From an uncultured bacterium (lineage in GTDB: Bacteria; Omnitrophota; Gorgyraeia; Ghiorseimicrobiales; Ghiorseimicrobiaceae), in assembly GCA_913009335.1 (NCBI GenBank), contig CAJVXN010000010.1, positions 1 through 56,336 on the forward strand: a DNA stretch of 56,336 nt, in the 5' to 3' direction. Below the pieces are notes generated by a model. The model did not search any database and was not told the origin of the DNA. It saw only the letters and a list, made by a program, of their open reading frames with translations. Positions 8,618 to 8,943 of the stretch are shown here, piece after piece (the first letter of the stretch is position 1; every line of letters begins with the position of its first letter). The translations under genes and the position numbers were made by a program.

Positions 8618-8943
8618 GGGCCGCTAGCTCATCCGGTAGAGCACTACCCTCGATAAAGGGGGCGCTGCTGAGTAATCAGTAGTAGAAAATCTTGTAAATT
8701 GCGGGAAAACCTGGGGTATTTCAAGATACTCAATAGTTTTTGAGTAACAATGCTTGAATGCAGACAATCCGCAGCCAAGCCCTAATGAAGATTTTTTAGG
8801 GAAGGTTCAACGACTATAATCAAGACTCCCATAAATTGGTTAAAATTTATGGGAGATGGGATAGTCTGATCTGTATGGCGACATACAGCTAACATTAATG
8901 TTTAAGGTAGGGGTGCCGTGTTCGAGACACGGGCGGCTCACCA
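8618..8943 (+). tRNA. tRNA-Lys(UUU), interrupted by a group I intron in the anticodon loop; exons 8618-8650 and 8901-8943, CCA encoded
   Basis: Joined exons give a full cloverleaf: acceptor GGGCCGC/GCGGCTC, D arm GCTC/GAGC, anticodon stem CTACC/GGTAG with loop CTTTTAA, T arm CCGTG-TTCGAGA-CACGG, A73, CCA. Confidence 0.93.
8651..8900 (+). mobile_element. Group I intron (250 nt, no internal ORF) inserted after U33 of tRNA-Lys(UUU)
   Basis: P1 with U8650.G8658 wobble (exon CCCU vs IGS GGGG); P10 TAAA (8654-8657) with 3' exon TTTA; P element TTGCGGGAAAA and Q AATCCGCAGCC; R GGTTCAACGACTAT and S GGATAGTC with P7 GACTAT/ATAGTC; P8 CTCCCATAAATT/AATTTATGGGAG; P9 CTGTATG-GCGA-CATACAG; omegaG8900. Confidence 0.93.

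What the first reader, a model, noticed from the sequence alone, without database searches (positions are those of the whole stretch)
8618..8943. Group I intron splitting the anticodon loop of tRNA-Lys(UUU) after U33
Seen directly: exons 8618-8650 and 8901-8943 join into a perfect tRNA-Lys with loop CUUUUAA. The 250-nt intron shows P1 (CCCU/GGGG with U.G at the splice site), P10 (TAAA 8654-8657 with 3' exon TTTA), P4 P/Q elements, P7 R/S (GACTAT/ATAGTC), a 12-bp P8, a GCGA-capped P9 and terminal G8900. Well-known bacterial tRNA group I introns are in Leu(UAA), Arg(CCU), Ile(CAU) and fMet, mostly at positions 34-37. A tRNA-Lys(UUU) host with insertion right after U33 is unusual as far as I know; I cannot check novelty here.
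Basis: partly seen in the sequence, partly recalled or inferred. Interest (0 to 1): 0.88.

Follow-up and report, generated by a model that had tools for sequence, protein, structure and literature searches.

The report
Self-splicing intron in lysine tRNA gene
An uncultured Omnitrophota bacterium's only detected lysine-UUU tRNA gene is split, just before its anticodon, by a group I (self-splicing type) intron, and the gene for a DNA-cutting enzyme that tracks this one tRNA gene across two bacterial phyla sits beside it rather than inside the intron, which points to a two-part mobile element living in an essential gene.

Summary
Exons 8618-8650 and 8901-8943 join into tRNA-Lys(UUU); the 250-nt insert after U33 is a group I intron (RF00028, 92.1 bits, cut-off 50). 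Twenty homologous introns at the same splice site show strong covariation. It is the only Lys(UUU) gene found in the genome. Twelve of 392 sampled Omnitrophota genomes carry the intron; none of the twelve has an uninterrupted copy that my pattern detects. A scan of one genome per species (85,488) for an 18-base core word found the family almost only in Omnitrophota MAGs, plus one Patescibacteria MAG.

All 7 sampled genomes holding it have it directly upstream of an intron-bearing tRNA-Lys (9 such loci in all, 6 intact). In Patescibacteria its three closest homologues each lie just downstream of an intronless tRNA-Lys(UUU). Some loci keep a duplicated piece of the tRNA on the far side of the gene. 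Best reading: a tRNA-Lys-targeting free-standing endonuclease and an ORF-less intron that move together ('collaborative homing', so far described in phages). Splicing and cleavage are inferred, not shown. New variant of a known kind.

The parts
8618..8650 (+). tRNA-Lys(UUU) 5' exon, nt 1-33, ending at U33
   Evidence: Joins with 8901-8943 into a cloverleaf
8651..8900 (+). ORF-less group I intron, 250 nt, terminal G8900
   Evidence: RF00028 92.1 bits; covariation in 20 homologues
8901..8943 (+). tRNA-Lys(UUU) 3' exon starting with anticodon UUU, CCA encoded
8647..8661 (+). P1: CCCU 8647-8650 with GGGG 8658-8661, U8650.G8658 at the 5' splice site
8812..8866 (+). P7 (8812-8817 with 8861-8866), enclosing P3 3' strand 8821-8825 and P8 (8827-8837 with 8844-8854); P7 invariant in 20 of 20 introns
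8871..8888 (+). P9 hairpin with GCGA loop
7722..8567 (+). LAGLIDADG homing endonuclease gene (281 aa), N-terminal helix-turn-helix-like region, acids D98 and E185; outside the intron
   Evidence: Pfam PF14528, alignment of 30 homologues, fold match to PI-TliVMA and I-DmoI, linkage
7074..7634 (+). frr (ribosome recycling factor); upstream neighbour of tRNA-Lys(UUU) in all 19 intron loci with enough upstream sequence except the Patescibacteria one
   Evidence: Pfam RRF; synteny

Best explanation
[quoted passage not shown] Inferred: the precursor RNA folds, guanosine attacks after U33 (P1 U.G), the exons are ligated with omega-G8900 (and P10), and a normal tRNA-Lys(UUU) is released. The endonuclease cuts tRNA-Lys(UUU) genes that lack the intron, at or near the insertion site. 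Repair from the invaded allele copies the intron, and often the endonuclease gene together with a fresh 5' tRNA half, into the cut gene; the target's own 5' half is sometimes left behind as a relic. The intron then protects the gene from further cutting, and over time the endonuclease decays while the intron stays. This is collaborative homing in a chromosomal tRNA gene.
For: Intron: RF00028 hit, ARAGORN, covariation. Need for splicing: sole Lys(UUU) gene found; AAA codons outnumber AAG 276 to 167 in 12 window genes; uninterrupted Lys(UUU) pattern in 298 of 392 phylum genomes but in none of the 12 intron carriers. Linkage: all 7 of 392 genomes with the endonuclease have it directly upstream of an intron-bearing tRNA-Lys (chance about 3e-12). 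Target: in Patescibacteria the three closest homologues lie 0 to about 80 nt downstream of an intronless tRNA-Lys(UUU). Activity: both catalytic acids invariant in 30 homologues, fold like I-DmoI. Insertion traces: 5'-half copies between frr and the endonuclease gene in G217, G203, G295, a 3'-end copy after it in G1074. Gain or loss within genera: G203 against G222, G390 against G157. Decay states: 6 intact, 3 broken, 10 absent with the intron kept.
Against: No splicing or cleavage data. The endonuclease has never been seen beside an intronless tRNA-Lys in Omnitrophota, so its preference for the intronless target there is inferred. The intron tree broadly follows host families, so recent mobility is limited. 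Short 5'-half duplications also occur at three intronless loci without the endonuclease, so relics are not specific to it. The window itself has no relic.
Confidence: 0.68

Rival explanations
1. A splicing group I intron inherited mostly vertically within Omnitrophota families; the endonuclease is an independent free-standing homing gene that only uses the same conserved tRNA gene as a landing site ('intronless homing'). There is no cooperation, and the intron moves rarely, for example by reverse splicing or whole-locus transfer.
For: The intron tree broadly follows host families. Ten of 19 intron loci have no endonuclease gene. In Patescibacteria the endonuclease lives beside intronless tRNA-Lys.
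Against: In Omnitrophota the endonuclease occurs only at intron-bearing alleles, 7 of 7 genomes and 9 of 9 loci. Intron presence differs within two genera.
Confidence: 0.25
2. The LAGLIDADG protein is a maturase or RNA chaperone for this intron, or a WhiA-like regulator, rather than a homing endonuclease.
For: Some LAGLIDADG proteins are maturases (bI3 is among the structural matches) and WhiA, a transcription factor, also matches. The gene is next to the intron.
Against: Both catalytic acids are invariant. Ten intron loci do without it. Homologues in Patescibacteria stand beside tRNA-Lys genes with no intron detected.
Confidence: 0.06
3. The interrupted copy is a dead gene, and a normal tRNA-Lys(UUU) lies in the unassembled part of the genome.
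For: The assembly is 92.6% complete.
Against: Intact cloverleaf with encoded CCA, and invariant P7 and splice sites in 20 loci. No uninterrupted copy detected in any of 12 carriers, against 76% of genomes overall (about 4e-8 if independent).
Confidence: 0.02

Closest known systems
Group I introns of bacterial tRNA genes (Leu-UAA, Ile-CAU, initiator Met; Arg-CCU from memory)
   Same: Self-splicing-type intron in the anticodon loop, U.G at the 5' splice site, omega-G (PMC4033280, PMC8450103)
   Different: Host is tRNA-Lys(UUU) and the site is 33/34; the intron has its own core sequence (CAACGACTATAATC) unlike the Tyr and Asn introns of the same genome (GCAGAGACTA)
Collaborative homing pairs of phages (free-standing endonuclease plus ORF-less intron; reviewed in PMC3984707; F-CphI/psbA of cyanophage S-PM2 from memory and PMC6083498 abstract)
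   Same: Endonuclease gene outside but beside an ORF-less intron at a shared conserved target
   Different: Bacterial chromosome, tRNA gene, LAGLIDADG type; duplicated tRNA halves at some loci; cleavage not shown
tRNA-fMet intron with PD-(D/E)XK-type endonuclease, as in Synechocystis I-Ssp6803I (from memory); a similar arrangement is in this genome at L004
   Same: tRNA intron after U33, homing-endonuclease-like ORF
   Different: There the ORF starts inside the intron; here it is outside and of another endonuclease class
'Group I introns' claimed in tRNA-Lys(CUU) of Gloeocapsa (PMC5733544)
   Same: Also said to interrupt a tRNA-Lys anticodon loop
   Different: Those inserts are 22-49 nt, too short for a group I core; I do not count them as precedent
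T4 SegB, endonuclease of the phage tRNA region (reference in PMC3984707; PMC13096335 abstract)
   Same: Free-standing endonuclease tied to tRNA genes
   Different: Phage, different endonuclease class, no intron partner

Membership tests
Group I intron (RF00028) | Covariance-model score above the curated cut-off | tested here: met
   92.1 bits against 50
Group I intron (RF00028) | P3-P9 core including the P3/P7 pseudoknot, supported by covariation | tested here: met
   56 pairs in 11 helices, 97.3% paired, 31 with changes on both sides. P4 and P7 hardly vary, so they show conservation rather than covariation
Group I intron (RF00028) | U.G pair at the 5' splice site and terminal G at the 3' end | tested here: met
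   U33 and intron-terminal G in 20 of 20 introns; in several rows, the window included, U-A is an alternative P1 register
Group I intron (RF00028) | P10 pairing of the guide region with the 3' exon | tested here: inconclusive
   4 bp in the window; 0-4 bp in homologues, depending on P1 register
Group I intron (RF00028) | Guanosine-dependent self-splicing | not testable with these tools
   Needs in vitro transcription
Functional tRNA-Lys(UUU) | Cloverleaf with UUU anticodon after removal of the intron; only copy in the genome | tested here: met
   genome 92.6% complete
LAGLIDADG homing endonuclease | LAGLIDADG domain, two motifs with acidic residues, matching fold | tested here: met
   PF14528 E 3e-9; D98 and E185 invariant; pLDDT 90.9 and Foldseek match to PI-TliVMA, I-DmoI
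LAGLIDADG homing endonuclease | Site-specific DNA cleavage | not testable with these tools
   Needs purified protein
Collaborative homing pair | Endonuclease gene outside the intron and linked to the intron-bearing allele | tested here: met
   7 of 7 genomes in a sample of 392; 9 loci in all
Collaborative homing pair | Endonuclease target coincides with the intron insertion site, and the intron blocks cutting | not testable with these tools
   Only indirect: relics of the tRNA 5' half end at nt 29-33, and homologues in another phylum sit beside the same tRNA

The most novel reading that the evidence does not exclude
A family of free-standing LAGLIDADG endonucleases is specialised on one essential tRNA gene, tRNA-Lys(UUU), in at least two phyla. 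It settles beside the gene while part of the tRNA is duplicated, so that an intact tRNA is kept; [quoted passage not shown] Similar endonucleases beside tRNA-Arg(CCU) and between tRNA-Thr and tRNA-Tyr in Patescibacteria suggest that several tRNA genes have their own such parasite.
Probability: 0.45. Interest if true: 0.85.

Novelty: new variant of a known kind. Interest (0 to 1): 0.72.

Why it matters
It extends bacterial group I introns to tRNA-Lys(UUU) and to a phylum for which the papers I could search report none. It offers a chromosomal case of an intron and an endonuclease that are linked but not nested, so the old question of how mobile introns acquire their endonucleases becomes directly testable: empty, intron-only, intron-plus-enzyme, enzyme-only and decayed states are all in hand. 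It also matters in practice: a standard tRNA search misses this gene, so tRNA counts, and quality estimates that use them, can mislead in these lineages.

Tried and rejected
A tRNA 5'-half relic upstream of the window's own endonuclease gene was sought and not found. Viral collections: the intron core word occurs in 9 viral contigs, where no tRNA intron was called; the endonuclease was not found in viral contigs, phages or plasmids, so no vector was identified. A boxA-like leader was tested as an intron-linked part and downgraded, because family f31 has it without the intron. Endonuclease remnants were sought with an HMM in the long gaps of G275 and L090; none were found. Precedent for a tRNA-Lys group I intron was sought in the literature; only the 22-49 nt claims of PMC5733544 turned up. 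The original papers on the cyanobacterial fMet intron are not held, so its exact site was not checked. Considered and rejected: a protein-spliced (archaeal-type) tRNA intron, because the group I core is complete and covarying; and a dead gene (rival 3).

Full report
Observation. Rfam scores the insert at 92.1 bits as RF00028, cut-off 50. ARAGORN with introns allowed returns tRNA-Lys(ttt) with the intron at 33/34; without introns it returns nothing there. The splice assignment is the one that puts U at the 5' site and G at the intron end; P1 and P10 coordinates are.

Host and need for splicing. The window is contig 10 of a 1.88-Mb, 92.6%-complete assembly. Relatives holding the same intron at the same locus are mostly titled Omnitrophota or Omnitrophica. 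The 43 other tRNA hits were typed: Lys(CUU) is present and no other Lys(UUU), and a nucleotide search for the spliced gene finds only the two exons and part of Lys(CUU). AAA outnumbers AAG 276 to 167 in 12 window genes. In 392 Omnitrophota genomes an uninterrupted Lys(UUU) pattern matches in 298, but in none of the 12 intron carriers.

A family of introns. A splice-site pattern found 9 carriers in the phylum sample. The endonuclease search added two whose P9 region is longer, and an Rfam scan of 78 genomes without an uninterrupted match added one. The core word GGTTCAACGACTATAATC, scanned over one genome for each of 85,488 species, hits 20 stretches: 18 are introns inside a tRNA-Lys gene, one (L084) has only the 3' part of such an intron at a contig start, and one is a chance match (ARAGORN gives some of them other names because the exon boundary is ambiguous to it, and the splice rule settles them as Lys). 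Two carriers are titled Chlamydiae and Elusimicrobia, both from one groundwater sample set, and may be mis-binned. One, L086, is a Patescibacteria MAG with a different neighbourhood including dnaJ-like and lepA-like genes. All 20 complete introns use the same splice site. The fold is supported by covariation: 97.3% of cells paired, 31 of 56 pairs with changes on both sides, score 0.406 against 0.180 shuffled and at most 0.108 slid.

The missing partner. The ORF at 7722-8567 has Pfam LAGLIDADG_3, acids D98 and E185 invariant in 30 homologues, and a confident predicted fold (pLDDT 90.9) whose best PDB matches are the PI-TliVMA intein endonuclease and I-DmoI. Of 392 phylum genomes 7 hold it, every one directly between frr and an intron-bearing tRNA-Lys; the chance of that is about 3e-12. 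With the extra contigs there are 9 such loci, six with the gene intact (window, L060, L072, L073, L077, L085) and three decayed (L059, L062, L063). Ten further intron loci with upstream sequence lack it.

Independent evidence for its target. In Patescibacteria the three closest homologues (G750, G804, G1074) each lie 0 to about 80 nt downstream of an intronless tRNA-Lys(UUU), with no group I intron detected there. So the endonuclease family follows this tRNA gene with or without the intron, across phyla. This is the strongest argument that its DNA target lies in the tRNA-Lys gene.

Traces of insertion. Between frr and the endonuclease gene, G217, G203 and G295 carry a copy of the tRNA 5' half: nt 1-29, 1-30 and 1-33 (the last with about 8 nt of intron), scores 53-61 against a shuffled maximum of 22. 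In Patescibacteria G1074 a 16-nt copy of the tRNA 3' end follows the endonuclease stop codon (score 27 against a shuffled maximum of 22). Genomes of one genus differ in the intron: G203 has it and G222 does not, G390 has it and G157 does not. Caveat: 5'-half duplications without the endonuclease occur at three intronless loci, so the locus is prone to such events in general.

Mechanism. Shown: anatomy, covariation, mutual exclusion with an uninterrupted gene, linkage to the endonuclease. Inferred: self-splicing; cutting of intronless tRNA-Lys by the endonuclease; co-conversion of intron plus neighbouring gene during repair; protection by the intron; later decay of the endonuclease. The intron tree broadly follows host families, so transfers may be old or mostly within families.

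Comparison with the known. Bacterial tRNA group I introns are reported in Leu, Ile and fMet (PMC4033280, PMC8450103; Arg from memory). Collaborative homing is described for phages (PMC3984707). PMC8172020 mentions tRNAs with group I introns in CPR-rich assemblies without naming Lys. The tRNA-Lys(CUU) 'introns' of PMC5733544 are 22-49 nt, too short to be group I introns. I found no earlier report of the Lys(UUU) intron in the held library, which lacks most subscription journals.

Verdict. New variant of a known kind.

Noticed in passing
own genome: L001 (C2), L003 (C29), L004 (C18): Three more tRNA group I introns in the same genome: Tyr(GUA) after U35, Asn(GUU) after U35 with an HNH-type ORF (ARAGORN calls it Thr), and initiator-type Met(CAU) after U33 with a PD-(D/E)XK-like ORF.
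   Followed up: partly
Omnitrophota loci L133-L188: Of 78 Omnitrophota genomes without an uninterrupted Lys(UUU) match, 42 have group I introns, many in tRNA-Tyr, Asn and Met genes; G212 has ten hits, most of them clustered on one contig.
   Followed up: partly
L245, L246, L248, L250; L247, L249, L251, L252, L253: In Patescibacteria, more distant LAGLIDADG ORFs lie repeatedly between tRNA-Thr(UGU) and tRNA-Tyr(GUA) (4 loci) or beside tRNA-Arg(CCU) (5 loci), as if different endonuclease families were tied to different tRNA genes.
   Followed up: no
L090 1554-3573: In one intron locus the slot between frr and tRNA-Lys holds a DNA-methyltransferase-like ORF and a second ORF that looks like a restriction nuclease, instead of the homing endonuclease.
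   Followed up: no
L075 (contig titled Chlamydiae), tRNA-Lys with intron: Its tRNA 5' half (GAGCCGC) and 3' half (GCGCCCC) do not pair fully in the acceptor stem, as if two alleles had been joined near the intron; it may be co-conversion or an assembly or binning error.
   Followed up: no
L107, L191, L205: 5' tRNA-Lys half copies (31, 17 and 13 nt) upstream of intronless tRNA-Lys genes, separated from them by short, partly palindromic inserts.
   Followed up: partly
window 8583-8592: A boxA-like antitermination motif (TGTTCATTGA) precedes the tRNA; within one mismatch in 14 of 19 intron loci but 10 of 75 intronless ones, partly a clade effect.
   Followed up: partly
window 10806-11099: A small GIY-YIG gene lies between tRNA-Lys and the downstream tRNA-Leu; similar GIY-YIG ORFs follow tRNA-Lys in L057 and L058.
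   Followed up: no
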